Shown here piece by piece: positions 39,325 to 59,089 of a DNA stretch of 64,000 nucleotides. Source of the DNA: Alloprevotella sp. oral taxon 473 str. F0040 (GTDB taxonomy: Bacteria > Bacteroidota > Bacteroidia > Bacteroidales > Bacteroidaceae); the NCBI RefSeq assembly GCF_000318095.2, contig NZ_KB290716.1:20426-84425 (forward strand). The letters are read 5' to 3'. The notes under the pieces were generated by a model. It was given only the letters and a program-made list of their open reading frames with translations. It had not been told where the DNA came from and did no database searches. The position numbers and the translations under genes were made by a program. The first letter of the stretch is position 1. Each line of letters opens with the position of its first letter.

Positions 39325-39359
39325 AAACGCGCTCAATCCTTGCGGACTGAGCGCGTTTT
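39325..39359 (-). terminator. Terminator of the FAS1-SusCD operon
   Basis: AAACGCGCTCA (39325-39335) pairs perfectly with TGAGCGCGTTT (39348-39358), with an inner TCC/GGA. It lies about 58 bases past the last susD stop. On the minus strand the stem is followed by CTTGTTGTAC, so the T-run is short. Confidence 0.7.
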
Positions 39360-39416
39360 ACGCTAGAAATATTGAGGCATCTGAATAATCATGACTCTAA
39401 AATGCCTAAATTCTGC

Positions 39417-41603
39417 TTAGTTACGTGCCTTTGGAGCTGGAAGATACCAGTTGCCACTTACGAAACGATCGTAGAAGTTTCCGGTCTTTGTGGGTTGCTC
39501 ATAAGGTTTGAGATCAAGATCGCGACGAGAAATCAACCATGCCATCCATGAGTTGTTCACTTTTTCATCACCAGCCTTGTTGCGGTGACGTTGGATGCGC
39601 ATGAGATCAAAGTAACGGTGACCTTCAAAAGCATTGTCGAGCGCCATTTCATCAGCAATAAGAGTTTCTACTGCTGCAATTTCAGCCTGAGTAGGCTCAT
39701 AAGGTGTGAGCTTACCCGTCACATAAACGTGATCATACTCGTCGCCTGATTCAGTGGCTTCCTTCTCAACACGTGTCTTGGTATCATCAAACTCAAGTTT
39801 GGGAGTTTCCAAGAGCTCAGGCTTCTCCATAGCTACACCCTGACGTGCAGCTTCGTCAACAATACGTTGGGCAACGACGTTCTTGTAGACCCAAACAGTA
39901 TCAGCATCAGTGAAGAAACCACATCCTGCGGAATGTATGCCTACATTAGTCTTATTGGTGAAGGTACTGAAATCAAGGTATTCCTTTTCACCTGCACGAA
40001 TAATGGTGCTTTCACCAATGCTATTAGGCCCATTTATCTGACGAATAATCCATGGACGAGTCAAGGATATAATTCTGGAGATGTCCTTCTTGGTGTCGTC
40101 TGTATAGACTGTATCGACGAATGTACGCTCTACCAAACGTGGGTTGTTTTCAGGACTCAAGCCTGAGCGGAGCACATCAAATGCCATACGTGGGTATCCA
40201 GCGCGATTGATGGCTTCGGCATACTTAAGATAGATACGACGAAGTGTGTAAACTGGAATACCATAGGAGAACTGAGGTCTGGAGGTAGCATAGGCTCCAT
40301 TAGGAGAGTTAGAAGGCATGTTGAACTTTTGGATAAAGCGCAACTGACCTGCTTCAGTCATGTAGATGGGAGCACTCTGATTGCCTCGGATATCTCCTAA
40401 TGCGGGATATTTCACATCCTTAACACGACGACTGTTGTCATCAAATTCATTATAGACAAATACTTGACTCTCATTCAGCTTGAGGTAAGAATTAGAGGGT
40501 TGTACTTGACGATTGCGATAGTTGACAGATAATGATACCTCTCCCTGTGAGCTGGTTTCTTCCTTCTTTTTGCCATCACTTCCCGTAGATTCTTTAGTAT
40601 CGCGGCTGGTAGTTGAGCTAGCATCGAATCCATAAATCTGAGGAATGCGAGAAAGCACCTTACCGAAGAAGCTGTTGGCCGCTGAAGGGATAGAAGTAAA
40701 CACCCGTCCTTGCGAAATAATGTTCTTATTTTCATAAAGGGAATACCAACCAGAAGTGGCATCAAAAAGGTCAGAACGATCACCGTCACGACGATAAGCT
40801 CTAGCATATGCAGAGACTGCTAATCTAGTATTACGGTCAAGGTAGCGATGGAAATGGGTAGCTGCTTTCTCGTAGTCAGACTTGTCGGCACCACGGAGCA
40901 AATAGAGATCGCCATATACAAGATCGCCATTGAAGACTGTGAGTGCTTGTGCAAAGTCTCCAGCACCAGTTTTGAAGTTAGGATAGTTGATATAACCTAA
41001 TCCATTGCTGTAGGCATAGGCTTGCTTTAAGCCGCCATGTTGTTCCAAAAGGTTGAGGAGGTTGTCGGGAGTGGCAAATCCAAGAGGAGGATTTTGTTCC
41101 CAACCAGTAGAAGCTGAGCTAACGGGAGCAGTGATAAAAGGAACGCTGCCGTATTGCTGTACTAGTTGGAGATAAGTCCACGCACGCACAAGCTGAACTT
41201 GAGCCAACTCACGGCGCATGTAGTAGTTATTATTTCTCAGTGCCATAGAGTCCACCTTGTCAAGGTAGAAGTTGCACTGGTTGATCACCTTGTAGTAGGC
41301 AGCGCGGTTCAACAATTCGCTGCTTCCATCAGAATGGTCGCGGAAATTGATGATGTTGTTGATGGAGTCATTGGTATACTCCGTTGCACTGACTAGGTCG
41401 CCTCGCAATTCTCCAAGCAAGACGTTTTGCTCTACCACGCCTTGAAGATTGCGCAGAATGCCGAAATAGAAATTGACAGTGTCTCGACCAGAGAAGTTCT
41501 CTGCATAACGGTCAATATCGGGAGTGAGCATATCTTCACACGAAGTGGTGAGTGCACCAAAGCCTACGAGGGCGAGAATCAGCGAAAGAATTGATTTCTT
41601 CAT
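39417..41603 (-). CDS. SusD/RagB-family surface lipoprotein (second pair)
   Basis: SusD-like proteins form the lid over a SusC transporter and bind its cargo at the cell surface. This 728-residue member is longer than the usual 500-600. The signal peptide ends TTSC (lipid-modified Cys22) and is followed by EDMLTPD. The family C-terminal motif is present as DEMALDNAFEGHRYFDLMR, close to residues 655-675, and helical TPR-like repeats cover the N-terminal half. A lysine/glutamate/serine-rich insertion near residues 335-350 (KESTGSDGKKKEETS) is probably a surface loop. It is last in the operon and pairs with the SusC immediately upstream. The ligand is unknown. Confidence 0.9.
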   Translation of the reverse strand: MKKSILSLILALVGFGALTTSCEDMLTPDIDRYAENFSGRDTVNFYFGILRNLQGVVEQNVLLGELRGDLVSATEYTNDSINNIINFRDHSDGSSELLNRAAYYKVINQCNFYLDKVDSMALRNNNYYMRRELAQVQLVRAWTYLQLVQQYGSVPFITAPVSSASTGWEQNPPLGFATPDNLLNLLEQHGGLKQAYAYSNGLGYINYPNFKTGAGDFAQALTVFNGDLVYGDLYLLRGADKSDYEKAATHFHRYLDRNTRLAVSAYARAYRRDGDRSDLFDATSGWYSLYENKNIISQGRVFTSIPSAANSFFGKVLSRIPQIYGFDASSTTSRDTKESTGSDGKKKEETSSQGEVSLSVNYRNRQVQPSNSYLKLNESQVFVYNEFDDNSRRVKDVKYPALGDIRGNQSAPIYMTEAGQLRFIQKFNMPSNSPNGAYATSRPQFSYGIPVYTLRRIYLKYAEAINRAGYPRMAFDVLRSGLSPENNPRLVERTFVDTVYTDDTKKDISRIISLTRPWIIRQINGPNSIGESTIIRAGEKEYLDFSTFTNKTNVGIHSAGCGFFTDADTVWVYKNVVAQRIVDEAARQGVAMEKPELLETPKLEFDDTKTRVEKEATESGDEYDHVYVTGKLTPYEPTQAEIAAVETLIADEMALDNAFEGHRYFDLMRIQRHRNKAGDEKVNNSWMAWLISRRDLDLKPYEQPTKTGNFYDRFVSGNWYLPAPKARN

Positions 41604-41662
41604 GATGGTGAAGTGTTGAATCTAATGTGATGTATGGGGATGGGAGTAACGAAAGTGGAGGC

Positions 41663-41693
41663 GGCAAGCCCATCTTATGGGATGGAACTTGCC
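41663..41693 (-). other. Hairpin in the susC-susD gap (second pair)
   Basis: GGCAAG (41663-41668) and CTTGCC (41688-41693), with inner CCATC/GATGG, form a stem in the 117-base gap between susC and susD. No T-run follows. Confidence 0.6.
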
Positions 41694-41720
41694 ATTTCCT
41701 TATACTTTCCTCGAACAAGC

Positions 41721-44700
41721 TTAGAGGTTGATGGTCAAACCGAGATTGAAACTACGATTTTGCATCAGCATGCCTGTATCAATACCTTGATAAAGGACTC
41801 CGTTGCCTGCGGTTACTTCTGGATCGCTGCCGAGATACTTCGTGAGGGTTACAACATTGTTGGCTTCACCCCATACGGAGAATCCTTGCAACCAAGAAAG
41901 GCTTACAGGAAGCTCATAAGTGAGACGAACTCGCTTGAGCTTGAGGTAAGAACCATCCTCGATCCAACGATCAGAGAAACGCTCATTGTTTACCCAGTTG
42001 AGTGACTCAGGACTCATGGTGCGTGGCTGATTGGTCTTTTGACCTTCTGCACGCCAACGATTGACTACAGCAGTGGTTTGATTCCAAATGTTGTTGGCAC
42101 TTTCAAGCTGCATGCGTTGATAGTTGTAAATGTCATTGCCCAAAGAGTACTTGAAGTTGACATCGAGAGTGAAACGCTTGTAGTTGAGAGTGGTGAAGAT
42201 GTTACCATAGAGGTCGGGATTGGGATCACCGATTTTTACGCGGTCAGCTTCATTGATCCAACCATCGCCATTTTGATCGACAAAGTGAACATCGCCTGCC
42301 TTGAAATCGCGTGAAGGCTGTGAAGAAAGGCCCGTGGGATATTTCAAACCTGCAGCTTTAGCTTCGGCAGTGGTAGAGAAAACACCTGCGGTCTTGTAGC
42401 CATAGAAAACGCCTGCGGCTTCGCCCACTGCAGTAAGGATGTTGTCCTTGCCATAAATAGAACTAGTGTAACCATTCAACACGGTTTCGCTAGAAGCTAT
42501 CTTCTGAGCATTCTTGTCTAACCGGTAAGTGCGGATTACGTTGTTCTCAGTGAGTGGAAGTTTCGTGATTTCGTTCTTATAGTGTGCTACGCTGAATCCG
42601 AGATTCCACTTGAAGTCTTTGGTGTTGATCAAGACTGCATTGACATTAACACTAGCACCCGTGTTGCGAAGTTCGCCTTCATTGGTCCACTGGCGTGAGA
42701 GACCTGTGATGTCGCTCACGGTGCGACGAGTGAGCAGGTCGGTCGTGATAGAACGATATACGTCTACACCAAGTGCCAAACGGTTACGGAACATATTCAG
42801 CTGCACACCTGCATTGAGACGATGCGTAGTTTCCCACTGAATCTTGGGGTTGGCTATGTTAGCAAGTTCCAATGACGTAGCGCGATCCAAGAACTTGATG
42901 TTCTGGAAATAGGTACGGGTGGCATAGTAATCGAGATCGTCATTACCGCTCATCTCATAACCTGCAGTGAGTCGAGCATAGTCAATGAAAGATACATTGA
43001 ACCACTTTTCGTTGCTCATCACCCAACCAGCTTGCAAAGAGGGGAAGAGACCCCATTTTACGCCAGCAACCTTGATGCCCCCCTCAGCTTCCTTACCAAA
43101 TCGTGAGGAACTTTCTGCAGAAGCAATGAATTTGACGAAGTAGCGATTGAGGAAGTTGTAGTCTACATTGGCATAGTAAGCCAAGTTAACCCAACGGTCA
43201 TTGACACCACCATTGCCGAGATAGTCGAGACGATAGCTGATGTTGGGCGTCTTGTCATTACCATTGTTGTAACCTTCTGAAAAGCTATCGGAATATCCGT
43301 AAGATGCCATGCGGAATCCTCCGAAGACATCCCATTGATGCTGACCGTAGTTTTTGGTCCATTCGATGCGGAAATCATTGTTGATGGTGGTTTCCTTACC
43401 AAACTGTGTGGCGATGACATTTTGCACCATGCCAAGACCTTCTACATACTTCTTAGGAGTTCCGCTAGCTGGCATGAAATACTTTTCATTGCTACGGATA
43501 AGAGAATAGGCAAAGCGGTTGGTGATTGAGAGGTTCTTGTTAATTTGATATTTAGGAGCTACGTTAAGCAAGAATTGTGTTTGCTCTTGATAGTTCTTAT
43601 TTTCTCCTTCACCATTGTCAAGCACCCAATAGGGATGCGCCAAACCTTCAAATCCAAAACGAGAAGCGAAGAGGAAGGGGTTGTTAGCTGCAGTGTAATC
43701 TTGACCTGTATATACACGATTATTGTGCACAAAGCCCAATTGATTATTTCCTAAATAACGGAGGAAGTAAGCATAAGGGTCTACAAATGGGGACTGAATG
43801 AGTCCCAACACATTGGGAGAAGAGATATTCTTACGCGCATAACTGGAAGCCCATCCGTTGTCACGGAGATTGTAGGCATTTCGCACGTAGGTCATGTCTA
43901 AAGCTGTGGTAAAACCGTCAAAAAGATTGATATCAGTGTTGAAACGGATGTTCAAACGATTGAAGTCATTCTTCTTTGCAGTAGCTTCACTTTGGCTATA
44001 ACCCAAAGACAAGTTATACATAGCCACTTCGTCACCACCCTGCACATTCACACGATAGTTCTGACTGAAAGCATTGCGATAGAGAGGCTTCTGCCAATTG
44101 GTCTCATTGTGATAGAGATCGTAGAACAAGCTCTTCTTGTCTTCGTTGAGGAAAGGAACGGACAAATCGGAAGCACGGAAGCGAGCATCGGGAGTAGTAC
44201 CCAAGAACTCGGCAAGGTAGCTGCGATATTGCTTGGAGTTCATCACCGAAAGGGTGTTGGGCATCTGCTCAAAACCTCCAAAAGCACGGATGTTGATGCG
44301 AGTGGCCATAGAATGACCACGCTTGGTGGTGATACGGATGACCCCATTGGCTCCTTCAGCTCCGTAGAGTGCTGTACCGTTTTGCAACACTTCTACACTT
44401 TCAATGTCTTCTGTGTCTAAAAGATTGAGGACATTGGTATAGAAACCTTGGTGAAGAGTGGTGCGACTATATTGCATATCCCACACTACTCCATCGACTA
44501 CCACCAAAGGTTGTGCACTTGCATTGAGGGAATTGAGACCATTGATGAACATGGCTGCACCTTGTGCGGGCATTCCGCCACGATTGATGGTGCGAACTGC
44601 GCCATGGAGACGTTGTTCGATGTCATTTTCAATGGTGATGGAGCTAGACTCATTGATTCGCTCTACACGCTTCTGGAGAATGTTTGTCCCATTAGAGTAG

Positions 44701-45110
44701 AGCGATGGGAGTTGATTGCTATAAAGATAGACGTTGCGAAGATTCTCTCCACGAAGTGCTACCTGCACTCCATTGTATCCATCGGTCGATACATAGAGGG
44801 CCGTGATATATTCAGGTACACGGAGTGTGTATTCACCTTTTTCGTCGGTAAGTGCACTGTAGTAGCGATTGTTGAGTGCTTGCACGCGCACACCACTCAA
44901 AGGTTGATTGGTGGCAGCATCGTAGACCACACCTTTCACTTCCTTCTTTTGAGCGGCAGGCTGGTGAACTGCTTTCTTATCGGCCATCCGTGTGCTATCG
45001 CTTACTTCCGCAGCGTGTGCATTGAGCACGCAAGCTCCTGAAAGTACGAAGAGACTGACGCCACAACGTAGGGCTGTTTGCATCATATTATTGCGATGAT
45101 CAATATTCAT
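41721..45110 (-). CDS. SusC/RagA-family TonB-dependent transporter (second pair)
   Basis: A 1129-residue outer membrane transporter energised by TonB. After a signal peptide ending near NAHA/AHAAE (about residue 34) comes a carboxypeptidase-D-like beta domain (EVKGVVYDAATNQPLSGVRVQAL, about 57-130). The plug domain (about 150-270) contains QPLVVVDGVVWD, DIESVEVLQNGTALYGAEGANGVIRITTKRG, with the usual SusC wording. The remaining ~850 residues are a 22-strand barrel. The plug entry LPSLYSNGTNILQKRVERINE differs from classic SusC. It pairs with the following susD and lies 28 bases after a FAS1 lipoprotein gene. Confidence 0.92.
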   Translation of the reverse strand: MNIDHRNNMMQTALRCGVSLFVLSGACVLNAHAAEVSDSTRMADKKAVHQPAAQKKEVKGVVYDAATNQPLSGVRVQALNNRYYSALTDEKGEYTLRVPEYITALYVSTDGYNGVQVALRGENLRNVYLYSNQLPSLYSNGTNILQKRVERINESSSITIENDIEQRLHGAVRTINRGGMPAQGAAMFINGLNSLNASAQPLVVVDGVVWDMQYSRTTLHQGFYTNVLNLLDTEDIESVEVLQNGTALYGAEGANGVIRITTKRGHSMATRINIRAFGGFEQMPNTLSVMNSKQYRSYLAEFLGTTPDARFRASDLSVPFLNEDKKSLFYDLYHNETNWQKPLYRNAFSQNYRVNVQGGDEVAMYNLSLGYSQSEATAKKNDFNRLNIRFNTDINLFDGFTTALDMTYVRNAYNLRDNGWASSYARKNISSPNVLGLIQSPFVDPYAYFLRYLGNNQLGFVHNNRVYTGQDYTAANNPFLFASRFGFEGLAHPYWVLDNGEGENKNYQEQTQFLLNVAPKYQINKNLSITNRFAYSLIRSNEKYFMPASGTPKKYVEGLGMVQNVIATQFGKETTINNDFRIEWTKNYGQHQWDVFGGFRMASYGYSDSFSEGYNNGNDKTPNISYRLDYLGNGGVNDRWVNLAYYANVDYNFLNRYFVKFIASAESSSRFGKEAEGGIKVAGVKWGLFPSLQAGWVMSNEKWFNVSFIDYARLTAGYEMSGNDDLDYYATRTYFQNIKFLDRATSLELANIANPKIQWETTHRLNAGVQLNMFRNRLALGVDVYRSITTDLLTRRTVSDITGLSRQWTNEGELRNTGASVNVNAVLINTKDFKWNLGFSVAHYKNEITKLPLTENNVIRTYRLDKNAQKIASSETVLNGYTSSIYGKDNILTAVGEAAGVFYGYKTAGVFSTTAEAKAAGLKYPTGLSSQPSRDFKAGDVHFVDQNGDGWINEADRVKIGDPNPDLYGNIFTTLNYKRFTLDVNFKYSLGNDIYNYQRMQLESANNIWNQTTAVVNRWRAEGQKTNQPRTMSPESLNWVNNERFSDRWIEDGSYLKLKRVRLTYELPVSLSWLQGFSVWGEANNVVTLTKYLGSDPEVTAGNGVLYQGIDTGMLMQNRSFNLGLTINL

Positions 45111-45138
45111 ATTCTTCGATGATTATAGTTTAGATGGC

Positions 45139-47106
45139 TTAATTGCCACGATAAGGCTTGAGAACTAGAGCTACGATGTTGAGTGCGCTGCAACGGATTT
45201 TCTTGTCACTTCTTCTCTTCTTAGGCATGGTGATCACCAAACGAGGGAATGAGTCGATGCCACTAGGCAATCCTCTATAGCATTTGGGGAATTCGATGTA
45301 CTTACCAAGCTTAATGGTGTTGACCTTGCTCTGATCGAACTGGGGATTACCCTTCGCATCTTTTTCTTCTTGGTCGATGGTGATGGTTTTTGTAGCCTTT
45401 CCATCTTCGTCAGTAAACTCGATTTCCTTACCTTCGTCGTCTAAGACTTTGGCAGAAAAAACAACGCGCTCATCATCTACATCACCGAAGTTGAGGTCGG
45501 TCTTAGAAGGCACCATAACAAGTTCTACTTCGTAACGCGTAGAGAATACTTGTGGCAAGCGGAGGTTAACTACCATCTCAGACTGGATGTTGTCGATTTG
45601 GAAGCGAACATAAGTGTTGGTTGCGATGTCGCCTTTGACACCAGTCATGACAACATTACCGTCAGCATCTTTAATCTCATTACCAGCTTCATCGGTTTTA
45701 GCACGATACTCGTTATAGTTAGACTCGTTGAGTGTAATGAATGTTCCCTTACCAGAAGCAGAACGAACATTGTTGGTATTGAGAATCACAAAGAATCCAG
45801 AACGTCCCATGAGATACTCCACCTTTTGTACCCAAGCATAAGCTGGATCCAAATCATACTTCGTCAAACGATAGATGTAACCATTAGAAGCACGATAAGG
45901 AGTGATACCAGCTAACACAGGATTCTGTGCGCTGTTAGTACCTTTGCCATCTGCTGCTGAATTATAGAACACGACACCAGATGTAGCAACCAAAGAGTCT
46001 GCATGATTGACATAGTTGTTGAGCTGAGCAGAGTCTTTGCCATCGATGTTGCGCATATAATAAGGCGCAAAGAACATATTGACAGCGATGTTCTGTTCTG
46101 TGACATGCTGTTGCAAGGAGTCTGCAAGTGTCATCTTAGGATCGGCCTTGGTAGGTGCATCAAGTCTGAACTGGTCCTTGAGGGTTTTACGGTTGAAGTC
46201 AGCACCGTTCCATTCATAAGAGTAGCGTTGACCATATTTCAAAATACGACCTATCTTCTCTTTGGCTTGGAGCCATGCTTCATTCGTTGGGATGAGGGCT
46301 ACATAAGTAGAGTCTTCATTACGAATGCTGGCTCTTGCAAAATTAAGAATCTCGTTGCGACGACTCACAACAGTATCCACATATACCATCTGTCCTTTCT
46401 CATTCAAGGCACCAGGAGTCGAACGATTCCAGAGGGTGTCGATTTCAGTACGAGATGCAATCAAGTTGTTGACACTAGAGAACTGTGGATAGTAACCGAG
46501 ATAGTCGTAGATATTGTAGGCGAAGGGGGCAACACCATTCAAAAGATGTAGGCTACCATTGCTGGCTACTTGGGTGCTACCTTGAACAGGAATGCTGCTA
46601 AACTTGTCACCTGAGTAGATGGCATTCTTTTGGTTCATCATCTTGATTTCCTGTTTGCCGGTATAACCTTCGTGGTTAAAGCGAGCAATGTGGTTACCTA
46701 CAAGCTGTGACCAAACATAGTATGAGATGTCGAGTGCTTTAGTGCGACCTTCGGGAGTGCCGAGAGCGGCATACTTAGCAGCAGCATCGAGAGTATCGTT
46801 CCAAGTCTTTGCATTGAAAGAACCATTAACGGGAGCCCACATGGTGAAGCTCTGAGACTGATTCAACAACTCTGCTGCTGTGATAGTAGACTTGTGATCA
46901 TTCTCATTGCTCAAGACCTTGGTACGCTTTAAGATTCCAGCAAAGTCTGACAAATTGGGATTGCTCTCAATGGTTTCCCAAAGGGTCTTATCAGAACCTA
47001 TGGTATTTTTGATATCAAAATGGTCGTCTGTGCAGGCACTTATGGCAAGCATGGCCATGGTGGCTAGTGCACCGCGAGATACCCATTGACTTATTCTATT
47101 CTTCAT
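45139..47106 (-). CDS. Fasciclin (FAS1) domain lipoprotein, 655 residues
   Basis: The signal peptide ends ISAC (Cys25) and is followed by TDDHFD, an acidic start that resembles the lipoprotein export signal used in this phylum to reach the cell surface. FAS1 domain 1 (about 40-195) has SQSFTMWAPVNGSFNAKTW. Domain 2 (about 200-420) has STYVALIPTNEAWLQAKEK. The last ~220 residues form a beta-rich domain without a clear name. FAS1 domains mediate adhesion and ligand binding in many organisms. The protein lies between another FAS1 lipoprotein and the second SusC, so it is probably an accessory surface protein of the SusCD complexes. Confidence 0.85.
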   Translation of the reverse strand: MKNRISQWVSRGALATMAMLAISACTDDHFDIKNTIGSDKTLWETIESNPNLSDFAGILKRTKVLSNENDHKSTITAAELLNQSQSFTMWAPVNGSFNAKTWNDTLDAAAKYAALGTPEGRTKALDISYYVWSQLVGNHIARFNHEGYTGKQEIKMMNQKNAIYSGDKFSSIPVQGSTQVASNGSLHLLNGVAPFAYNIYDYLGYYPQFSSVNNLIASRTEIDTLWNRSTPGALNEKGQMVYVDTVVSRRNEILNFARASIRNEDSTYVALIPTNEAWLQAKEKIGRILKYGQRYSYEWNGADFNRKTLKDQFRLDAPTKADPKMTLADSLQQHVTEQNIAVNMFFAPYYMRNIDGKDSAQLNNYVNHADSLVATSGVVFYNSAADGKGTNSAQNPVLAGITPYRASNGYIYRLTKYDLDPAYAWVQKVEYLMGRSGFFVILNTNNVRSASGKGTFITLNESNYNEYRAKTDEAGNEIKDADGNVVMTGVKGDIATNTYVRFQIDNIQSEMVVNLRLPQVFSTRYEVELVMVPSKTDLNFGDVDDERVVFSAKVLDDEGKEIEFTDEDGKATKTITIDQEEKDAKGNPQFDQSKVNTIKLGKYIEFPKCYRGLPSGIDSFPRLVITMPKKRRSDKKIRCSALNIVALVLKPYRGN

Positions 47107-47141
47107 TGTGATAGGAAAGCTGAAGGTGAGAAATTATACAA

Positions 47142-47195
47142 CCTTTCTCTTGCTGCTGGCAGAAGCCTAAAGGCTTGCCAGCAACAGAGAAAAGG
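47142..47195 (-). other. Strong hairpin in the FAS1-FAS1 gap
   Basis: TTGCTGCTGGCAGAAGCC pairs with GGCTTGCCAGCAA with small bulges, and the outer CCTTTCTCT pairs with AGAGAAAAGG. It fills most of the 95-base gap between the two FAS1 genes. On the minus strand TTGTATAATTTC follows, so it may be an attenuator or a stabilising element. Confidence 0.65.
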
Positions 47196-47201
47196 AAAGC
47201 T

Positions 47202-49319: not shown

Positions 49320-49322
49320 AAC

Positions 49323-51293
49323 TTATTTACCATTATTGGTTTTAGGCATGTACTTTTCCCAAGCTGGATTCTGCACCAACTGGCCTCCAGTACTACCACC
49401 ATAGTTCTTACCGTTCACTTTGAGTTCTTCTACATAGATTGGGTTGTAGAGAGACCAAATGGATTGAAGACGTGCGCGAACAGCTGTGGGCAAACCTGCC
49501 CAGTCCAAACCACCCTTAGTCTTGTTTTGAGTGCTGTAAGTGAATTCACACTGGCGAACGATGTCGAACCAACGCTTACCTTCACCAATGAATTCTCTTT
49601 GACGTTCGGCAGCAATATAATTCACAACATTGCTATAGTCTCTGTGACGAGCATCCCAAGCCTCGGCAAACTTCTTTGCCTTTTCTCCTTCTGCCACATT
49701 CTTGATAGCATCGTCTTCAAACTTTGGTGAACGAATACGCACGCTAAAGTTCTCACTACCTTCAATCAGGGTGTCAGCACCTGGGTTGTTACGACGATAG
49801 ATGTCGTCGGCAAGCATATAGGCAGTGCGTTGATTCAAGCTCTTTTGTCCCTTGGCACTTTGCACCATCACCGTTTCCTGTTTGAAATCGCTGGTCAAAC
49901 GAGCCAATGCCTCTGCTTGAATTGTCATCACATCTGTAAGGCGATAAACAGGCCAGTGGGCTTTTTGAGAACTATTATTACGCATCGAGTAAGATACCCT
50001 CCCCTGGCGTACATTAAGAGGGTTAATATCACTCACCGAAGAAGCAGCTCCTTTAATGATGGGAGTAGAGGATGCTTTACCATTTTCATCCAAGAAACCA
50101 TAGGAAACCATGCGCAGGTCAGTCTTACCATAGCCCTTTTCTACGTCAACTTTATCGGTCACGTTGAATAGACCATTGGCTGCAATCATATTACCAGCAC
50201 TATGACTACCACTACCATCACCATAGAATTCTGAAGGGATAGTAGTGTTCTTTACGTTCACTCCATCAAAGTAGAGTTCAAAAATACTTTCTGGTGAAAA
50301 TTGAATACCAAAGACCATGTTATACGCATCATCAGAAACAGCAAATTTTGAATCTGAATTGCGATATAAGGGGTAACGTACATTGGCACGATAGTCCGTA
50401 GGCTTAATGTTGTTGGTCAGAAGATACTGTTGGTATTCTTCTGCTGCTTTATCAATCACGTATTGAGCATACTGCACAGACTTTTGCAAAAGCTCTTGAG
50501 ACAATGCATTTTCTTGAGCTGCTGTGAGCTCTGCGCCATTTTCACCCTTGATAGGGAAACCTTTAATCTTGGCATTTTTCACCAAGCCAGCACGCCAGAG
50601 GTACATATCTGCCAACAAGGCATACATACCATTCTGAAGGATGCGACACTTATTGTTGTAAGTATCACCATAGTTCGTACTGGCTCTTCCAATATTATCT
50701 TCTACTTGTTTAATGAGCAGAGCCATCAAATCTGCAGCAGGTGTGGCAGGAATCTTAGAAGTACGTGCATCACGGTCTGTGTCTACAGAGTGTTCTACGA
50801 AAGGAACATCGCGATAGGCACGAACCAAATAGAAATAATATAAAGCACGCAAGGCAATCATTTCACTCTTAATGGGAGCAAAATCACCTTCTGTGAAAGA
50901 AGGATCTACCTTATCACGCACCATGCGTTCACCATTGTCAAGGACTTCGTTGCAGAAGTTGATACCTTTATACATGGATGACCAGTCGAACATCCCTTGC
51001 GTGGGTTGTAACACCCCATCCTGCAAGTAGCGATATTCAGTCTTCTCGGTCTTGTTCAGCTCTACATTGTCAGAGCGAAACTCTCCCCAAATGAGAATAT
51101 TGCTGGTGTTTTGTGTCAATTGATAATATGCGGCATTACGCACATTCTCAACATCGTTTTTACTCCCCCAGAATTCCTCTTTCGTAATAGAGTCGGTGGG
51201 ATAGAGTGTCAAGTAATCACTACAAGACACCAATCCGCCCGCCAACACAATTGCGCTGGATGTAAGGAGTTTGTTGATGATATTTCTTTTCAT
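49323..51293 (-). CDS. SusD/RagB-family surface lipoprotein (first pair)
   Basis: A 656-residue SusD-like protein. The signal peptide ends LVSC (Cys24) followed by SDYLTLYPTDSITKEEFWGSK, the standard N-terminus of the family. The C-terminal motif YIAAERQREFIGEGKRWFDIVR is present near residues 560-580. It should cap the preceding SusC (133-base gap with a hairpin) and bind its cargo on the cell surface. The FAS1 gene follows after 3 bases. Length is somewhat above the family average; the ligand is not predictable. Confidence 0.93.
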   Translation of the reverse strand: MKRNIINKLLTSSAIVLAGGLVSCSDYLTLYPTDSITKEEFWGSKNDVENVRNAAYYQLTQNTSNILIWGEFRSDNVELNKTEKTEYRYLQDGVLQPTQGMFDWSSMYKGINFCNEVLDNGERMVRDKVDPSFTEGDFAPIKSEMIALRALYYFYLVRAYRDVPFVEHSVDTDRDARTSKIPATPAADLMALLIKQVEDNIGRASTNYGDTYNNKCRILQNGMYALLADMYLWRAGLVKNAKIKGFPIKGENGAELTAAQENALSQELLQKSVQYAQYVIDKAAEEYQQYLLTNNIKPTDYRANVRYPLYRNSDSKFAVSDDAYNMVFGIQFSPESIFELYFDGVNVKNTTIPSEFYGDGSGSHSAGNMIAANGLFNVTDKVDVEKGYGKTDLRMVSYGFLDENGKASSTPIIKGAASSVSDINPLNVRQGRVSYSMRNNSSQKAHWPVYRLTDVMTIQAEALARLTSDFKQETVMVQSAKGQKSLNQRTAYMLADDIYRRNNPGADTLIEGSENFSVRIRSPKFEDDAIKNVAEGEKAKKFAEAWDARHRDYSNVVNYIAAERQREFIGEGKRWFDIVRQCEFTYSTQNKTKGGLDWAGLPTAVRARLQSIWSLYNPIYVEELKVNGKNYGGSTGGQLVQNPAWEKYMPKTNNGK

Positions 51294-51360
51294 GAGGTCT
51301 TAGATAAAGAGCGACAAGAGTCAACTCTATGATAAATAAGATGCTTATTGAAATGTTTCC

Positions 51361-51404
51361 TGTAGGTAAGCGGCAAAGTTCTCAAAACTTTGCCTACCCC
51401 TACA
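51361..51404 (-). other. Hairpin in the susC-susD gap (first pair)
   Basis: GGCAAAGTT (51372-51380) pairs with AACTTTGCC (51386-51394) and TGTAGG pairs with CCTACA outside. It lies in the 133-base gap between susC and susD, where similar hairpins are also found in the second pair. Confidence 0.65.
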
Positions 51405-51426
51405 CGGAAAACAGAGACCATTTGTG

Positions 51427-54400
51427 TTAGAAACCGAAGTTCAAGCTAAATGTAAACGAACGAGCGTTAGGCGTTTGCTGTCTGTCGATAGCAGGGCTAT
51501 AACCTGCAGCTCCGTGCTCTGGCTCAACACCTGAATACTTCGTCCAACGGAAAAGGTTGTTGGCTGAGAAGTGAATATTCAGAGCTGAAAGGCCGAGTTT
51601 CTTCAGATGCTTAGCATCAACAGAATAACCCAATTGGAAATATTGGAAACGCAAGTAGTCTGCAGCTTCAACGTAGCGGTCAGAAGCCAACGCATTGAAA
51701 GAGTTTCCTGCAGAAGCATTCTTCGCACGAGGAATTTCAGTCACGTCGCCATTCTTGCGCCAGCGCCAGTTAACAGATGCCATCTGATTCTTGTTGGTAC
51801 GCATATCTTCAGCTTCCATACGGGCAAGGTTGATTACCTTGTTACCTACACGGAAATTGAAGTTGGTCTTCAATGACCAGCGACCATAACGGAAGTCTAC
51901 ACCAAAACCACCGTTGACTTTAGGATTAGAAGAGCCTAGATAAACGATATCAAGTTCGTTGATTTGACCATCATGGTTGATATCTTCGTAAATTACGTCA
52001 CCACCTTCGAAACGATAGTTGACACCACCATAATCAAAGTACATGGGAAGAGGATTTCCGGCCTTGTCATAAATGACATTACCGTTGGCATCACGTGCAA
52101 TAGGTGCAGTCTTACCAGTAGCCTTAGCCGTATTGACTTTACCTGCAGCATCTACATACTTATTCTTCTCTTCATTTTGGAAGTAACCATTGTGGTCGTA
52201 GTCATAAGCGTAGACTCCCTTATAGCGGAAACCATAGATACCACCCAATGCGTGACCGAGCTGCACGCGCTTTACGAAGGTTTCATTCTTTTTATCAAAC
52301 TGACCATTCATGGAAGCCAAGACATTCTTGTCCATTTCCGTCACAACGTTCAAGTTTTGCGCTACGTTTGCACGTAGGGTTACGTTAAACTTGCCAATGT
52401 TCAAGATGGGCTTCGTAGAGACAAAGAGTTCCCAACCTTCATTCTCCATTCGACCCACATTACCATTGGCAATGTTAGAATAACCAGTTGAAGAAGGAAT
52501 ACGAATGTTAGACATGAGGAGGTCTGAAGTATACTTCTTATAGACACTCAAGTCAAATTGGAACAAGTCATCTAGCAAGTTGAGGTTGAAACCAAGGTTC
52601 CAAGACTTTGTCTTCTCCCAACGAATCTCCGTAAGACGGAGGTTATCAGGAGCAATACCTTGCTTACCAAGGTATGAACCATAAGAACTATACTTATTGT
52701 AAATCAAACCTTCTCCAAACCAAGCATTACCGTTCACACCCCAGCTAGGACGAACAGCCAACATGCTCACATATTTTTTCAAAGGCTTGAAGAAACCTTC
52801 GTCTGAGATATTCCAACGACCAGAGATACCAGGGAAGAATCCCCATTTGTTACCCGAGCCGAACTTAGTCATACCATCAGCACGAACTGTGAAGTCTACG
52901 ACATATTTTGAACCATAAGCATAGTGCAAAGTACCTGTTCCGTTCATGCTTCTATGTGTACCAGTGGAAGAGCCAGTACCTGTGAGATAGCCTGGAACGG
53001 TGGGGTCACTAATACCACCAGAAATACCAGAGAACGCTAAGTCTTGTTTGGTAGAACTACTTGTATTAATTTCGTAACGTCCCAATACTTGCAAAGAGTG
53101 ATTCTCGGGAAGATGAGGACGGAACATCAGAGAGTGACGCGAAGTGAACGAGAAGTTCTTAGAGTCAGAGTTGTTGGTAAGGTCCACACCTTGTGTCCAG
53201 TTGTTAGAAGTCAACTGATGCGGATAGTAAGAAGAGGTCGTTTCTGTGTACGCGTTGATATGTACCTCCGCAGTATAATTCAACTGCGTAGTCTCTTCGT
53301 CCTTACCCAAGAACTTATATTCCAAAGAGAATTGTGGAGTAATCGTATAAGTGCTCTGACGATTCCAAGCCAAGTTAGCAATCGCCACAGGGTTACCATT
53401 GTCCACCATGTCACCCAAATAGTAAGAGGTCAAACCAGAGTTATTGGGCAACAGACGATTTTTATAGGCATCACCAGCCTTAGGTGGCATAAGGTAATAC
53501 TCACCAGTATCAAAGTAGTTACCAGTCGCTTGGTCATATTCCCAACGATTCACCGCCATGTTGGGCATTGCCTTGTAGGCCTTATCCAAGATGTTACCGT
53601 TGTTACGGTTGTTCTTGGTGTAAGTGAGGGAGAAGTCAGAAGAGAATTTGATGCGGTCAGACACATAGTAGTCAAGTGTCAGACGAGTAGAGAAGCGATC
53701 GAGAGATTGCTTGATGATCGTACCTGTTTCGTGGTCATATCCACCAGACACACGGAAGGTCACCTTCTCACCACCACCAGAGAGGTTCACACCATAGTTT
53801 TGCTTCGTACCAAACTGGGTCACTTCTTTCACCCAATCCGTGCTCTTATTATAGTTTTCATAATAAGCAGGATGGCTGCGAAGGTAAAGCAACTCTACAA
53901 TACTTGAAGCATAGTCACTCTGATTGGGGTTAAAGTAAGCTTCTTTCAACATCATGGAGTAGCCAGGACCATCGAGCATATTGAGACCCTTAGGCTGCCA
54001 CGCACCATTGAAGCGATAGCTGAAATTCACCTTCGTCTTACCACGCTTACCGCGACGTGTCGTGATTTCAATAACACCATTAGAACCGCGTGCACCCCAG
54101 ATAGCAGTAGAAGCAGCATCTTTGAGCACCTTGATGCTCGCGATGTCCTCAGGATTCACTTGGAGAAGAGTAGCAAACTGTTCTTCGTTATCAAGGTTAT
54201 TGAGGTCGAGTGAAGACACATCCTGTCCGTCGAGAGGATAGCCATTCACCACGATAAGAGGCTCTTGCGAACCGTTGATAGAACTCACACCACGCAAGCG
54301 CATAGAAGTACCAGAACCAAGGTTACCAGAGTTGGCCACGATATCGAGACCAGCGATTTCACCTTGAAGAGCTTCACCTGCAGTAGTGAAGGACAGACCC

Positions 54401-54828
54401 TCTTTGCTGTCCATATTGAGGGTTTGAGTAGCCGTTGAAACTTCCTTTGGTGGAATATCCAAACCATTGGAACGCACACGACGTTTCGTCACAACATCCA
54501 CCGTAGAGATGGCATTGCGGTCGTGTAATTCAATGCGGAAAGTGGTGCGTGCACCGATGTTATCAATACGAGAAGTTTGATAACCTATATAAGAAATCTC
54601 AAGACGGTTGTTGGGATTCTTAATAGTCATGGTGAAGTTACCGCTCATGTCGGTCTGAGCAGCCGATACTACGCGGTTACTCTTATCCTTCTCCACGACG
54701 TTAGCCATAACGATAGCACCATCTGTCTTGCTAAATACATGACCAGAGATGCGCTTCTGCTGCGCAAAGGCCGCCGTAGTGCAACACAAGGCAAGTACAA
54801 TCGTTGAAGTATACTTTATGTGGTTCAT
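51427..54828 (-). CDS. SusC/RagA-family TonB-dependent transporter (first pair)
   Basis: A 1133-residue transporter with signal peptide (cleavage after AFA, residue ~22), a carboxypeptidase-D-like domain (KRISGHVFSKTDGAIVMANVV, ~24-100), the TonB-box-like stretch STVDVV (~110) and the plug (about 130-260), containing GEALQGEIAGLDIV, SGTSMRLRGVSSINGSQEPLIVVNGYPLDG and IKVLKDAASTAIWGARGSNGVIEITTRRG, which is classic SusC. The rest is a 22-strand barrel ending in FTFSLNFGF with a terminal Phe. It follows the large FAS1 gene by 11 bases and is paired with the next susD. Confidence 0.95.
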   Translation of the reverse strand: MNHIKYTSTIVLALCCTTAAFAQQKRISGHVFSKTDGAIVMANVVEKDKSNRVVSAAQTDMSGNFTMTIKNPNNRLEISYIGYQTSRIDNIGARTTFRIELHDRNAISTVDVVTKRRVRSNGLDIPPKEVSTATQTLNMDSKEGLSFTTAGEALQGEIAGLDIVANSGNLGSGTSMRLRGVSSINGSQEPLIVVNGYPLDGQDVSSLDLNNLDNEEQFATLLQVNPEDIASIKVLKDAASTAIWGARGSNGVIEITTRRGKRGKTKVNFSYRFNGAWQPKGLNMLDGPGYSMMLKEAYFNPNQSDYASSIVELLYLRSHPAYYENYNKSTDWVKEVTQFGTKQNYGVNLSGGGEKVTFRVSGGYDHETGTIIKQSLDRFSTRLTLDYYVSDRIKFSSDFSLTYTKNNRNNGNILDKAYKAMPNMAVNRWEYDQATGNYFDTGEYYLMPPKAGDAYKNRLLPNNSGLTSYYLGDMVDNGNPVAIANLAWNRQSTYTITPQFSLEYKFLGKDEETTQLNYTAEVHINAYTETTSSYYPHQLTSNNWTQGVDLTNNSDSKNFSFTSRHSLMFRPHLPENHSLQVLGRYEINTSSSTKQDLAFSGISGGISDPTVPGYLTGTGSSTGTHRSMNGTGTLHYAYGSKYVVDFTVRADGMTKFGSGNKWGFFPGISGRWNISDEGFFKPLKKYVSMLAVRPSWGVNGNAWFGEGLIYNKYSSYGSYLGKQGIAPDNLRLTEIRWEKTKSWNLGFNLNLLDDLFQFDLSVYKKYTSDLLMSNIRIPSSTGYSNIANGNVGRMENEGWELFVSTKPILNIGKFNVTLRANVAQNLNVVTEMDKNVLASMNGQFDKKNETFVKRVQLGHALGGIYGFRYKGVYAYDYDHNGYFQNEEKNKYVDAAGKVNTAKATGKTAPIARDANGNVIYDKAGNPLPMYFDYGGVNYRFEGGDVIYEDINHDGQINELDIVYLGSSNPKVNGGFGVDFRYGRWSLKTNFNFRVGNKVINLARMEAEDMRTNKNQMASVNWRWRKNGDVTEIPRAKNASAGNSFNALASDRYVEAADYLRFQYFQLGYSVDAKHLKKLGLSALNIHFSANNLFRWTKYSGVEPEHGAAGYSPAIDRQQTPNARSFTFSLNFGF

Positions 54829-54839
54829 AATGGCTGAGA

Positions 54840-57800
54840 TTATTCTTTGATACTGAATTTAGACAAGAAAGCCTTTGCCTGCTTAACACTGCTCCATTTG
54901 CGAGCGTATCCAGCAGAGAGTGACTTATCGAAAAGCAATGCCTTACCGATGGTATGCACCACAGCATACGAGCTACTGCGGATATATTGAGGAGCAGTTT
55001 CGCGATCGTAGTTGGCATCACGCACCAATTGGTTGTAAGGTGCCACCACAGGGACGGTTTGTCCGCTTTCGTCCTTCAACACAATACTGTTAGGAGTCTG
55101 CGACACATTCAACTTCATATACACCTTCGTCTCATTGTTTACACTAGAGGTGGAGTATTCTTCCTTGCTTGTCACATTGTCCACAAACACGCTTTCGTCT
55201 TGGAAGTGGTATTTTAAGAAGTTGACCAAAGTAGTGATCATAGCTTGCGCCTTGATTTTCACTTCACCATTGTGCTTATTCACTGCATCTACTTCCTTCT
55301 GATTACTCTTATCATCTGCGAGTTTTACTTCAGCTTGGAGATTATCAGTGAGATACTTCTCAATTTTTTCCCAAGTGGGAAGTCCCTTGTCCACCTCAGC
55401 CTTTACAGCTTCATTAGTAGGAGCGTAGATGGTATAACGATAGTTATTGAAGAAACGCACGAGCTTATCATCCTTGGTACCGGCATTAAACACTTGTCCA
55501 GCCTTATTACCTGCTACAAAGACATAATATTTCAGAGCCACCTTTTCACGTTCCTTACCAGCAGCATCGTCTAACTTCTTAGCCTTGAGAGAATCATACA
55601 AACCTGCTTTATCAAGAACATCAGTATTCAAGCCATCGCAAAGCTTCATAAACTCCGCATAGTCTGTATTCTTGGTCAAGATTTGGTAAGCAGAATGAGT
55701 CGTAGCCTGCAAAGGACGATCAAGAAGGTAGGTCATACCATTACCATAACCATTCTTTTCGCGTGTTTGGTCATACTCTGCTGTAATCGTTGATTGATAG
55801 GCTGCTCCCGTACCTTGGAGTTGTTCGGCCAAGCCTCCCATCAAAGTAGTACCCTTTCCGCGTTTACCAGTGCTGGTTACCATGATTGGAGCCCCCTCAC
55901 GAGACAAGAAATACTTGCGTTCGGCGTTAATACCTTGCACATCATTATTGTCGTGTACCACGATGTGATGGTTCACCATCTCAATCAAGAGTTTCTTCTT
56001 GATATAACCTACCCCCTGGTCGATCGTTACGTGACCTTCATGGTGGTAGTTTCTTTCTTCTTGGTCTTTAGTTTGTGGACCAGTGTTCAGGTTCAAGCGA
56101 TAAGCCAACTGGCGCACACCCAAAGTCTTCACACCACTTCCCGCACCACGCGTATTAGTAGGCTCCCAACGATAATAAATCTGGCGATTTCTCATCATGG
56201 AGGCAGGATCAATGTAACCAAAGTTCTTCAATCCATCGTCTGTAGGTACAAAGAAGGAGAAGCGGCTTTGCATTGCCTTCAAATAAGTTGAGAAGTACTG
56301 CTGCAAAGGTGCTTTAGCATAGTCACTACCTTGCACAAAAGAATCGTCGGCACGAACCACAGTACGTACTATTTGCGTGTTACTGCTATAAAGTGCAGGA
56401 GCCAACACAGAAGCATAGTCCGCAGGTGAAACCACACGATTCATTACATAGACCACACCATTGTTTGCTAAAAGAGTCTTGTCAATGACAGACTTATAAG
56501 CCGCCTCACTTGGATAGTCACGAAGGGGGAACATGGGGTCACGCGCATCATTCATAATGGTGAGGTACTTTGAAGGAACGCTCTCATTGAATGAGGGTTT
56601 CATCAAGTTATTCACCAAAGGCTGCACGATATCCAAAGGAATTTGGTCGATGTGTTTCAGAAGATTCTCTTCGTTCACCTCAAGATCCTTAAGACCATAA
56701 CGTTCAAGCAGCACTTGCCCCGCGCCACGCAAGAAATAATCTCTCAATGCTTTGTCACTGGGAACAAACATCACGCCCATGTCTTTCTCCTTCTCCGTGC
56801 CACCTTCAGGCTTATAAGAGTTCCAGCCTGGATCGTAAGTCAGGAGGGGGAAATCATTATTTACAATGCGATCAGGCCCAGTAGTCAAGCGGCCTGTCTT
56901 AGTATTGATTGCAAAATAGCGTTTTTCAAAGATAGAGTCTATACTATTATTATGGAGAGCTTTGTAGTTCTCTGTCAGTGTTGCATCATAATAAGGTGCG
57001 CTGAAACGATCTAAGATGTGGCTAAAGATATTAGTTTCGCCATTACTGCGAATCTCTTCTGCCATACTGCTGGGTGGAACCAACACCTTATCAAGCACAT
57101 GAAAATAACCATTCAAGCATACAACGTCTTGCTCCATCACACGATTACCAAAGACATAAGCACGAGTAGGATCACTTTCATTCCAGCCATTCTTATCTCC
57201 AACAATAAAGGCCACATCGCTACGTCTAACGCGCTGCTCCTTCATATTGTTTTCTATGAAGTGTGTCATCATAGGCTCAGAGTCATCTGTCGCCATAAGG
57301 ATACTCTTACCCTTATCACCCTTGAAGCGGTCCCAATAGTGTTTTTCGCCTTCCACCTGACTATAATTAGTAGGAAGCTCTTCTGGACGCCACAAACGCA
57401 CACTATCCACAACAGCAGCTGCAGAGTTCTGGCGCAAAGCGAGGTTTTTATCGCCATTGTCTGCATTACCCATCATCTCGATCACATAGGCATTATTGAG
57501 CTGTGCACCATTGAAGAGAATACGCTTTTGGGCATCGGTGAGTTGTTCATAAGAACTAACTCCCCATTTATTGTTCTTGAAGAATTCCTCATAAGCCGCA
57601 TCTGGAGCGACAAACAGCGTTTTACTACCCGTCTTCGACATCACCTCCTTATAACCGAGGTCTTCGATTAGACGCACTGTGTAGTTAAACTTATTACGCC
57701 CCTTGAGTTCATCATAGATACTACCACCCAAGAAACTCGGACGAGTCTCATCGAGCTTATAGTCATCTTGACAAGAGTACGTGATGCCGCCAATTGAGAG

Positions 57801-57872
57801 CAACAGGAAAGCTCCAATCATGGTCTTTCCCATTCTGCAAAAACGGTTTTTCATACACATGCTTTTTATCAT
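54840..57872 (-). CDS. Large fasciclin (FAS1) domain lipoprotein, first gene of the operon
   Basis: A 1010-residue lipoprotein. The signal peptide ends TYSC (Cys34) and is followed by QDDYK, close to a surface-export signal. Four FAS1-like domains can be traced by their opening motif: SKTLFVAPDAAYEEFF (~84), GVMFVPSDKALRDYF (~366), FSFFVPTDDGLKNF (~538) and YTIYAPTNEAVKAEV (~812). Each ends in a motif like GYFHVLDKVLVP or NGVVYVMNRVVSP. No enzyme motif is seen. Three in-frame ATGs occur in the first 18 codons; the first is used. A clear promoter lies 75 bases upstream, so it opens the operon. Confidence 0.87.
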   Translation of the reverse strand: MIKSMCMKNRFCRMGKTMIGAFLLLSIGGITYSCQDDYKLDETRPSFLGGSIYDELKGRNKFNYTVRLIEDLGYKEVMSKTGSKTLFVAPDAAYEEFFKNNKWGVSSYEQLTDAQKRILFNGAQLNNAYVIEMMGNADNGDKNLALRQNSAAAVVDSVRLWRPEELPTNYSQVEGEKHYWDRFKGDKGKSILMATDDSEPMMTHFIENNMKEQRVRRSDVAFIVGDKNGWNESDPTRAYVFGNRVMEQDVVCLNGYFHVLDKVLVPPSSMAEEIRSNGETNIFSHILDRFSAPYYDATLTENYKALHNNSIDSIFEKRYFAINTKTGRLTTGPDRIVNNDFPLLTYDPGWNSYKPEGGTEKEKDMGVMFVPSDKALRDYFLRGAGQVLLERYGLKDLEVNEENLLKHIDQIPLDIVQPLVNNLMKPSFNESVPSKYLTIMNDARDPMFPLRDYPSEAAYKSVIDKTLLANNGVVYVMNRVVSPADYASVLAPALYSSNTQIVRTVVRADDSFVQGSDYAKAPLQQYFSTYLKAMQSRFSFFVPTDDGLKNFGYIDPASMMRNRQIYYRWEPTNTRGAGSGVKTLGVRQLAYRLNLNTGPQTKDQEERNYHHEGHVTIDQGVGYIKKKLLIEMVNHHIVVHDNNDVQGINAERKYFLSREGAPIMVTSTGKRGKGTTLMGGLAEQLQGTGAAYQSTITAEYDQTREKNGYGNGMTYLLDRPLQATTHSAYQILTKNTDYAEFMKLCDGLNTDVLDKAGLYDSLKAKKLDDAAGKEREKVALKYYVFVAGNKAGQVFNAGTKDDKLVRFFNNYRYTIYAPTNEAVKAEVDKGLPTWEKIEKYLTDNLQAEVKLADDKSNQKEVDAVNKHNGEVKIKAQAMITTLVNFLKYHFQDESVFVDNVTSKEEYSTSSVNNETKVYMKLNVSQTPNSIVLKDESGQTVPVVAPYNQLVRDANYDRETAPQYIRSSSYAVVHTIGKALLFDKSLSAGYARKWSSVKQAKAFLSKFSIKE

Positions 57873-57946
57873 TTATTATGTATTCGTTTTATTGTTGCAA
57901 GTTAAAACCGTATGGACTTAAGGGTGATTCTATCCACACGACTTCG

Positions 57947-57978
57947 CAAAATTAGTCGAAAAGCAACTACTGACCAAA
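57947..57978 (-). promoter_or_regulatory. Promoter of the FAS1-SusCD operon
   Basis: On the minus strand, TTTG (57978-57975), 20 bases, then TAATTTTG (57954-57947): an exact match to the Bacteroidota consensus. It is 75 bases upstream of the first FAS1 gene. No second consensus promoter was noticed inside the operon. Confidence 0.8.
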
Positions 57979-58908
57979 TTTCCACGGACTATTTTTCGCC
58001 TCTCACATTAAGTTTTTTAATACTCAGGCTGAGTGCTAGCAAAATCTAGGTAATCTCTTTCATTTTTCAAGCAGGAAATGAATATTATTTACATATCCAT
58101 CCAGATAAAGCAGATTATACCCGAATATAGGCGAGTACACTTTGCAAAAACTACTATTAAAACTGCACACACTATTCATTTTTACCTTCCTAAAAATCGC
58201 AATAATCAAAAACAAAAATACACACTTAACAACATTATATATCATATAAGAAAATAACTCTTATATCAACTCCACCAACATCCTTACGATAATCGAAGCA
58301 AAATTCAATGCTAGCTAACGGCATAAAAGGAAAAGCGACTCACCAGCTTGGGCAACCCAGCCAACGAATGAACTTTCCATATTGACAACTCCAAAGCTTC
58401 ACGAGCAATCTATCCATTTCCCTTCAACCGCTATGCTTCATGCTCTAAAGATGATTCAGACAGCAACTCGCCGAACTCTCCTCCGTTCTAGAATCACCCT
58501 ATTATCACATTCAATCTGAACGCAAAATCTTGAGCTCAAAATCGGACAAACACCCTAGTCATCTCCTACACCGCTCAAAAAAAGTCACTTATATCTCACA
58601 TCCGCAACAAAAGCAAGAGACCAAAAAACAACATGGCCACCTTCAAGCATCCTATCTATCAACTTATTATCATCACTTTCTCACTTCAACAGAAAACAAG
58701 GAAACAGAATAAACCCACGAAATTAAAAGACATTTCAAATAGAAGCTTTCAGACATTATTCGTAAAGTAAGACCTTAGCCCAACGAAAGAAAACGCTCAC
58801 ATTGCACATCTGGTGAAGATGCGCCCAACTGCACCCCATCTAACTCTATTGGCAACAGCAACTCAGTCCAACACACCCAAATGAAATCATACAACTCTAG
58901 CCCAAACT

Positions 58909-59020: not shown

Positions 59021-59089
59021 AAAGTTTATCTACGTTGGAAGGACGAAAAAAAGAAGAAAGAGATTCCTCTAAAAGCTCTTCCATTGCTG

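What the first reader, a model, noticed from the sequence alone, without database searches (positions are those of the whole stretch)
39325..57978. An 18.5-kb operon linking two SusC/SusD pairs to three FAS1 lipoproteins
From a consensus promoter to a terminator, seven genes run FAS1(1010 aa)-SusC-SusD-FAS1(705)-FAS1(655)-SusC-SusD, with short gaps. The FAS1 proteins together have about eight domains, and at least two have acidic residues after the lipid cysteine, like surface-export signals. There is no glycoside hydrolase, lyase, sulfatase, protease, sensor or sigma/anti-sigma gene. This is unlike an ordinary polysaccharide utilisation locus and suggests a surface machine that captures a ligand through fasciclin domains (protein, glycoprotein or matrix) and delivers it, undigested or digested elsewhere, to two importers.
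Basis: partly seen in the sequence, partly recalled or inferred. Interest (0 to 1): 0.75.

Follow-up and report, generated by a model that had tools for sequence, protein, structure and literature searches.

The report
Conserved fasciclin and double-SusCD import cassette
A gut Prevotellaceae bacterium carries an 18.5-kb operon of two outer-membrane importers and three probable surface proteins built from eight fasciclin domains; many relatives carry the same seven-gene block, in several of them beside pectin-degrading genes, but this bacterium's genus keeps it without the pectin genes looked for, so what it imports here is an open question.

Summary
Seven minus-strand genes (FAS1a-SusC1-SusD1-FAS1b-FAS1c-SusC2-SusD2) run from an exact Bacteroidota-type promoter (57947-57978) to a strong terminator (39325-39358), with eight FAS1 domains (4+2+2) and no enzyme or regulator. 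The block is an old unit: the order is complete in 20 of 22 genus loci (one cut, one with a split SusC2), 28 of 40 loci from other Bacteroidales (11 scored as cut, one without FAS1b) and 3 of 3 loci outside the order. The seven proteins co-diverge. This supports one machine. This genus (with Prevotellamassilia timonensis) keeps it in 18 of 19 good genomes under purifying selection, yet GH28 is found in 2 of 19 and rhamnose and uronate isomerases in none. Best reading: a plant-glycan (probably pectin-type) uptake cassette now kept as an enzyme-free core importer; its present ligand is unknown. New variant of a known kind.

The parts
57947..57978 (-). Bacteroidota-type promoter TTTG-N20-TAATTTTG, 74 nt upstream of the first start codon
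   Evidence: exact match; 5 in window vs 0.84 expected. With a spacer of 18-22 an exact match lies within 350 nt upstream of FAS1a in 8 of 55 relatives' loci, the nearest (L032) among them; 47 have none. The consensus is recalled.
54840..57872 (-). FAS1a: 1010-aa lipoprotein (Cys34 invariant in its alignment) with four FAS1 domains (aa 56-269, 274-486, 497-726, 732-984)
51427..54828 (-). SusC1: TonB-dependent transporter of the SusC/RagA family
   Evidence: TIGR04056 654.8 bits
49323..51293 (-). SusD1: lipoprotein lid, SusD family
   Evidence: PF07980 52.4 bits, PF14322 37.5 bits
47202..49319 (-). FAS1b: 705-aa lipoprotein (Cys31 invariant in its alignment), two FAS1 domains (aa 51-210, 215-462) and an unassigned C-terminal region
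45139..47106 (-). FAS1c: 655-aa lipoprotein (Cys25 invariant in its alignment), two divergent FAS1 domains (aa 46-198, 202-418) and an unassigned C-terminal region
41721..45110 (-). SusC2: second TonB-dependent transporter of the SusC/RagA family
   Evidence: TIGR04056 553.2 bits
39417..41603 (-). SusD2: divergent SusD-type lipoprotein; YY-x-x-IN-x-CN conserved in ten aligned members
39325..39358 (-). Intrinsic-terminator-like hairpin, 15 pairs, 58 nt after SusD2

Best explanation
The operon encodes one outer-membrane uptake module. Three fasciclin-domain lipoproteins on the cell surface take the place that surface glycan-binding proteins hold in a PUL: they catch a large polymer and pass oligomers to two SusC-SusD 'pedal-bin' importers. 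The module is an old cassette of the Bacteroidia that descends, and is sometimes duplicated, as a block; in many carriers it works with enzymes for rhamnogalacturonan-type pectin or other plant cell-wall glycans. In this genus those enzymes and the rhamnose and galacturonate isomerases are absent but the importer cassette is kept as a core operon. It most likely scavenges glycan fragments released by others; galactose- or arabinose-rich side chains are a first guess, because GH2 beta-galactosidases stand beside the cassette in some related Prevotellaceae. Shown: gene content, FAS1 domains, order, co-divergence, purifying selection, neighbours in relatives, absence of the genes searched for. 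Inferred: surface location, complex formation, glycan as ligand, scavenging.
For: Order conserved across families and orders. Co-divergence. dN/dS 0.035-0.106 in the seven genes against the nearest relative. Of 393 Bacteroidales genomes GH28 is in 37 of 42 cassette carriers and 73 of 351 others. PL11 rhamnogalacturonan lyase in 30 of 41 carriers (a few by weak matches) vs 1 of 31 non-carriers. Nine PL11 hits, in six genomes, within 25 kb of FAS1c vs 3.5 expected, P about 0.009. PL11, GH28, GH43, GH106 and sensor domains in 104 flanking proteins scanned. In a Prevotellaceae MAG (L217) a PL11 gene starts 17 nt after SusD2. B. thetaiotaomicron RG-I locus: SusCD BT4164/65, SGBP BT4167, SusCD BT4168/69, lyase BT4170 (PMC8002723, passages). 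The genus clade lies inside Prevotellaceae cassettes (quick tree). GH2 beta-galactosidases L197, L219. Genus: cassette in 18 of 19 good genomes; GH28 2 of 19; RhaA and UxaC 0 of 19; PL11 0 of 8 tested.
Against: GH10 xylanase is also commoner in carriers (34 of 41 vs 7 of 31), so part of the association only marks plant-polysaccharide degraders. RhaA is near 4 of 67 anchors (0.91 expected, P 0.014), but three are in one genus; counted once the excess is not significant; UxaC 0 vs 0.93. No test corrects for phylogeny or genome size. Flanks differ between lineages, so ligands may differ. Only PL11, GH10, GH28, RhaA and UxaC were looked for in the genus. Nothing shows what the window's own cassette binds.
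Confidence: 0.55

Rival explanations
1. Re-purposed module: in this genus the FAS1 proteins catch a host or dietary protein, glycoprotein or peptide and the two SusCD pairs import peptides.
For: No glycan enzyme or sensor in the operon; the pectin genes looked for are nearly or wholly absent in the genus while the cassette is kept under strong constraint; FAS1 profiles match the animal matrix proteins periostin and TGFBIp.
Against: The match to periostin is at domain level and says nothing of ligand. Several of the nearest cassettes outside the genus stand near glycan enzymes. No peptidase is in the operon; a DPP-IV-type gene is the fourth gene downstream in one related group (six loci, L202 type).
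Confidence: 0.17
2. Ordinary PUL transporter whose enzymes sit elsewhere in this genome (split PUL), on a plant glycan other than rhamnogalacturonan.
For: GH10, GH43, GH2, GH115 and alpha-galactosidase genes flank some relatives' cassettes; GH10 association.
Against: GH10 0 of 8 genus genomes tested, GH28 2 of 19. The genome was not scanned for other CAZymes, so this stays open.
Confidence: 0.22
3. Two independent SusCD systems that merely share a promoter, with no joint function.
For: Each SusCD pair is complete; well-studied SusCD complexes have one kind of pair.
Against: Fixed order across the class and unit-wise divergence of paralogous cassettes.
Confidence: 0.06

Closest known systems
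B. thetaiotaomicron RG-I locus BT4145-BT4183, transporter block BT4164-BT4169 (PMC8002723, passages read)
   Same: Two SusCD pairs (BT4164/65, BT4168/69) with, by locus number, two genes between them, one called SGBP (BT4167), and then an RG lyase (BT4170). BT_4163 is listed with BT_4164/4165 in one PUL among genes changed in a dma2 mutant (PMC13088901, table passage; its substrate is given there as unknown).
   Different: Whether BT4163, BT4166 and BT4167 are FAS1 proteins, and the strand and order, were not tested here (no sequence at hand). The window's operon has no lyase, hydrolase or sensor.
Levan and dextran utilisomes (PMC7618045, passages read)
   Same: SusC2D2 core with extra surface lipoproteins, one a glycan-binding SGBP.
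   Different: One kind of SusCD pair, an Ig-like SGBP (levan) and a surface glycanase; here two pairs, FAS1 proteins, no enzyme.
RagAB peptide importer of Porphyromonas gingivalis (PMC11817032, search listing and start of abstract only)
   Same: SusCD-type importer implicated in protein/peptide uptake.
   Different: One pair; a FAS1 partner is not known to me (recall); nothing found here points to peptides.
Periostin and TGFBIp (animal four-FAS1 matrix proteins)
   Same: Tandem FAS1 domains; FAS1a also has four.
   Different: Animal secreted proteins; only domain-level similarity.

Membership tests
Polysaccharide utilisation locus (PUL) | SusC/SusD pair | tested here: met
   two pairs
Polysaccharide utilisation locus (PUL) | Linked carbohydrate-active enzymes | tested here: not met
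   none in the operon or among the ten neighbouring proteins scanned; met in several relatives
Polysaccharide utilisation locus (PUL) | Linked sensor (HTCS, SusR or ECF sigma/anti-sigma) | tested here: not met
   sensor-kinase and regulator domains do flank some relatives
SusCD utilisome | SusCD and surface lipoproteins form one stable complex | not testable with these tools
   co-divergence is compatible; the structure job did not return
SusCD utilisome | Surface glycanase component | tested here: not met
   no enzyme family among the seven proteins
Fasciclin (FAS1) domain proteins | Match to the FAS1 profile | tested here: met
   FAS1a, FAS1b over the Pfam cut-off; FAS1c only through its family profile
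RG-I pectin import system | Same gene layout as BT4164-BT4169 | tested here: inconclusive
   fits by locus number and names in PMC8002723 passages; strand and order not seen
RG-I pectin import system | Sequence homology to BT4163-BT4169 | not tested
   no B. thetaiotaomicron sequence was available
RG-I pectin import system | Host can degrade RG-I and use rhamnose and galacturonate | tested here: not met
   window genome (96.7% complete): no GH28, PL11, RhaA or UxaC match; other enzymes not searched

The most novel reading that the evidence does not exclude
The cassette builds an obligate mixed machine, a SusC1D1-SusC2D2 hetero-assembly crowned by eight FAS1 domains, and in this genus it has lost its pectin context and become a core, enzyme-free receptor-importer for a different ligand (for example a host-derived or bacterial surface glycan).
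Probability: 0.2. Interest if true: 0.75.

Novelty: new variant of a known kind. Interest (0 to 1): 0.52.

Why it matters
It gives fasciclin domains a testable role in bacteria: probable surface receptors tied to SusCD importers, in a block conserved in parts of the class Bacteroidia. It suggests that the surface-binding proteins of a well-known pectin locus may be FAS1 proteins. And it offers a natural case of an importer kept as a core operon in a genus that lacks the enzymes and isomerases its relatives have, a clean system for asking whether gut bacteria keep 'cheater' importers or re-aim them.

Tried and rejected
Considered and set aside: (1) a chance or recent neighbourhood, rejected by order conservation. 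(2) Relation to the Bacteroidota BAM complex, in which surface lipoproteins sit over a barrel: PMC12611786 holds no 'FAS1' or 'fasciclin' in its main text. (3) Relation to the trypsin-recruiting 00502/00509 proteins reported in Prevotellamassilia: 00502 is Omp28-related, both are T9SS-dependent (PMC9477747 passages). (4) B12 or iron lipoprotein systems: not tested directly; both SusC proteins score well over the SusC/RagA subfamily cut-off.

Led nowhere: structure prediction. The FAS1b job (alignment A4) had not returned at the last poll, so no fold search was run. The 24-member SusD2 alignment was too variable for the named-genome scan. Literature: ten searches showed no paper that ties FAS1 proteins to SusCD pairs. 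Of the few holding both words, PMC10199937 (passages) reports SusCD pairs and, apart from them, one highly transcribed FAS1 gene taken as an adhesin in a Flavobacteriaceae symbiont; PMC7661554 (passages) names a fasciclin gene in another organism; PMC6032426 is a fasciclin review (passages). PMC2668756 was seen in a listing only. The library holds only CC-licensed PMC papers, and the original B. thetaiotaomicron pectin paper was not read.
Full report
OBSERVATION. Gaps are 3 to 133 nt. SusC, SusD and FAS1 identities hold by family models, with two limits: SusD2 is divergent, and FAS1c has no Fasciclin Pfam hit of its own and is FAS1 only through its family. A FAS1 profile started from FAS1b's first domain and iterated over the three families ends with domains at FAS1a 56-269, 274-486, 497-726, 732-984; FAS1b 51-210, 215-462; FAS1c 46-198, 202-418. 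Eight is therefore right, with the caution that the profile was trained on these same families; the weakest domain (FAS1a 497-726, 1.5e-5) appears only in the last round.

ORGANISM. The genus holds Prevotellamassilia timonensis An873 and Prevotellaceae bacterium Marseille-P2826: contig lengths tie G032 and G033 to those records (168,486 and 2,762,878 bases). The window genome is 2.55 Mb in 24 contigs.

CONSERVATION. Around FAS1b matches, 40 stretches were fetched. Of 35 in this genus, 22 hold the cassette and 13 hold a FAS1b-like paralogue with no SusC recognised in the stretch. A six-frame profile count gives the complete order in 20 of 22 genus loci (of the other two, L037 is cut by the contig end and L038 has SusC2 in two pieces), 28 of 40 other Bacteroidales loci (11 scored as cut, one lacking FAS1b) and 3 of 3 loci outside the order. 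Two of the 11 'cut' loci (L104, L110) also lack FAS1b in its place. L067-L069 (FAS1 proteins without SusCD) and L137-L138 (sub-stretch and fragment) were left out. In the 80 best named loci found through SusD2, 79 have SusC2 directly upstream; 65 show SusD1-FAS1b-FAS1c-SusC2-SusD2 without interruption, 2 more do with a split SusC2, 5 lack FAS1b, and the other 8 are cut by the contig end. FAS1b is the least constant member. In 58 genomes of the genus a full-length FAS1c is found in 43, and in 18 of the 19 that are at least 90% complete and at most 5% contaminated; the exception, G449, is 99% complete. In 393 Bacteroidales genomes 42 have a FAS1c match of at least 240 model positions. Three genomes outside the order, of 295 searched in the class, have a long match.

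UNIT. Pairwise identities of the seven proteins over 29 loci (406 pairs) correlate at 0.78-0.96, which common ancestry alone would also raise. More telling, the two G191 cassettes are 23-40% identical across the seven proteins, yet one pairs with a G271 cassette (46-66%) and the other with the G077 cassette (35-62%) and a second G271 cassette (31-51%) for all seven. Not every pair tells: the two G267 cassettes are near each other (45-69%), and the G436 pair (21-51%) is no clearer than a pair between genomes. So the cassette descends, and at times duplicates, as a block. Against the nearest relative dN/dS is 0.035-0.106 for the seven genes. Of the ten closest named loci (among L142-L156) with over 2 kb downstream, nine have lpxD-lpxC-lpxA there; no other of the 80 loci does, though some are cut short. 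The SusC2 tree puts the genus rows, with one other Prevotellaceae row, in one clade inside the Prevotellaceae cassettes (quick method).

NEIGHBOURS IN RELATIVES. Flanks hold PL11 rhamnogalacturonan lyases, GH28, GH43, GH78 and GH106 rhamnosidases, an arabinofuranosidase, GH2, GH10, GH115, T9SS-tail proteins and sensor-kinase domains; others scanned have no family or no link to glycans. PL11 is in 6 of 50 downstream and 1 of 54 upstream proteins scanned. Presence: GH28 in 37 of 42 carriers vs 73 of 351; PL11 30 of 41 vs 1 of 31; GH10 34 of 41 vs 7 of 31; RhaA 34 of 41 (one a fragment) vs 2 of 20; UxaC 36 of 41 vs 5 of 20. Position, 67 FAS1c anchors in 41 genomes, within 25 kb: PL11 9 vs 3.5 expected (P about 0.009; six genomes), GH28 6 vs 6.5, GH10 2 vs 2.9, RhaA 4 vs 0.91 but three from one genus, plus a broken RhaA in G271 not counted, UxaC 0 vs 0.93. 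So a rhamnogalacturonan link is moderately supported and a general plant-polysaccharide link is clear; neither is corrected for phylogeny or genome size.

THE GENUS. GH28 is in 2 of 19 good genomes, PL11 and GH10 in 0 of 8 tested, RhaA and UxaC in 0 of 19. The window genome has no match for any of the five. The genus keeps the importer but has lost, or never had, this way of using pectin.

MECHANISM. SusD caps SusC, and extra lipoproteins dock on SusC's lip in known utilisomes (PMC7618045, passages). The lipid cysteines of the three FAS1 families are invariant in their alignments, and the acidic residues after two of them resemble the surface-export motifs S(D/E)3, K-(D/E)2 and Q-A-(D/E)2 without matching them exactly (PMC6222051, passages). 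I infer that FAS1a-c are surface receptors and that oligomers made elsewhere are imported. Known SusCD complexes are SusC2D2 twin barrels; whether the two pairs here mix is open.

VERDICT. Real, conserved and, by selection, functional; a variant of a known kind (SusCD uptake module), with FAS1 proteins as its probable surface components and an enzyme-free form in this genus. The layout match to BT4164-BT4170 is a lead, not a sequence test.

Noticed in passing
L039 (9071-13450) and L041; also L051-L056, L062, L070, L071: FAS1b-like lipoproteins (about 700 aa) without SusC in the stretch, in other genomes of the genus; L039 and L041 have two in a row.
   Followed up: no
window 57873-59487: A 1.6-kb intergenic stretch without an ORF of 100 aa or more between the operon and lepA, with several copies of 'ctcggaga' and an inverted copy around 58900-59000; like letters occur after the operon near 39055-39080.
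   Followed up: no
L164, L165, L167, L169, L170, L176, L178, L179 downstream of SusD2: In rumen Prevotellaceae/Bacteroidaceae a recurring run follows the cassette: in most a large protein (weak DUF5013 match in the one scanned), then GH28 and an Asp-Al_Ex permease.
   Followed up: partly
L067, L068, L069: Smaller FAS1 proteins (310-472 aa) elsewhere in Bacteroidales, not linked to a SusCD cassette in the stretch.
   Followed up: no
L142, 12187-17870: The nearest relative (Marseille-P2826) has two extra ORFs (235 and 977 aa) between SusD2 and lpxD.
   Followed up: no
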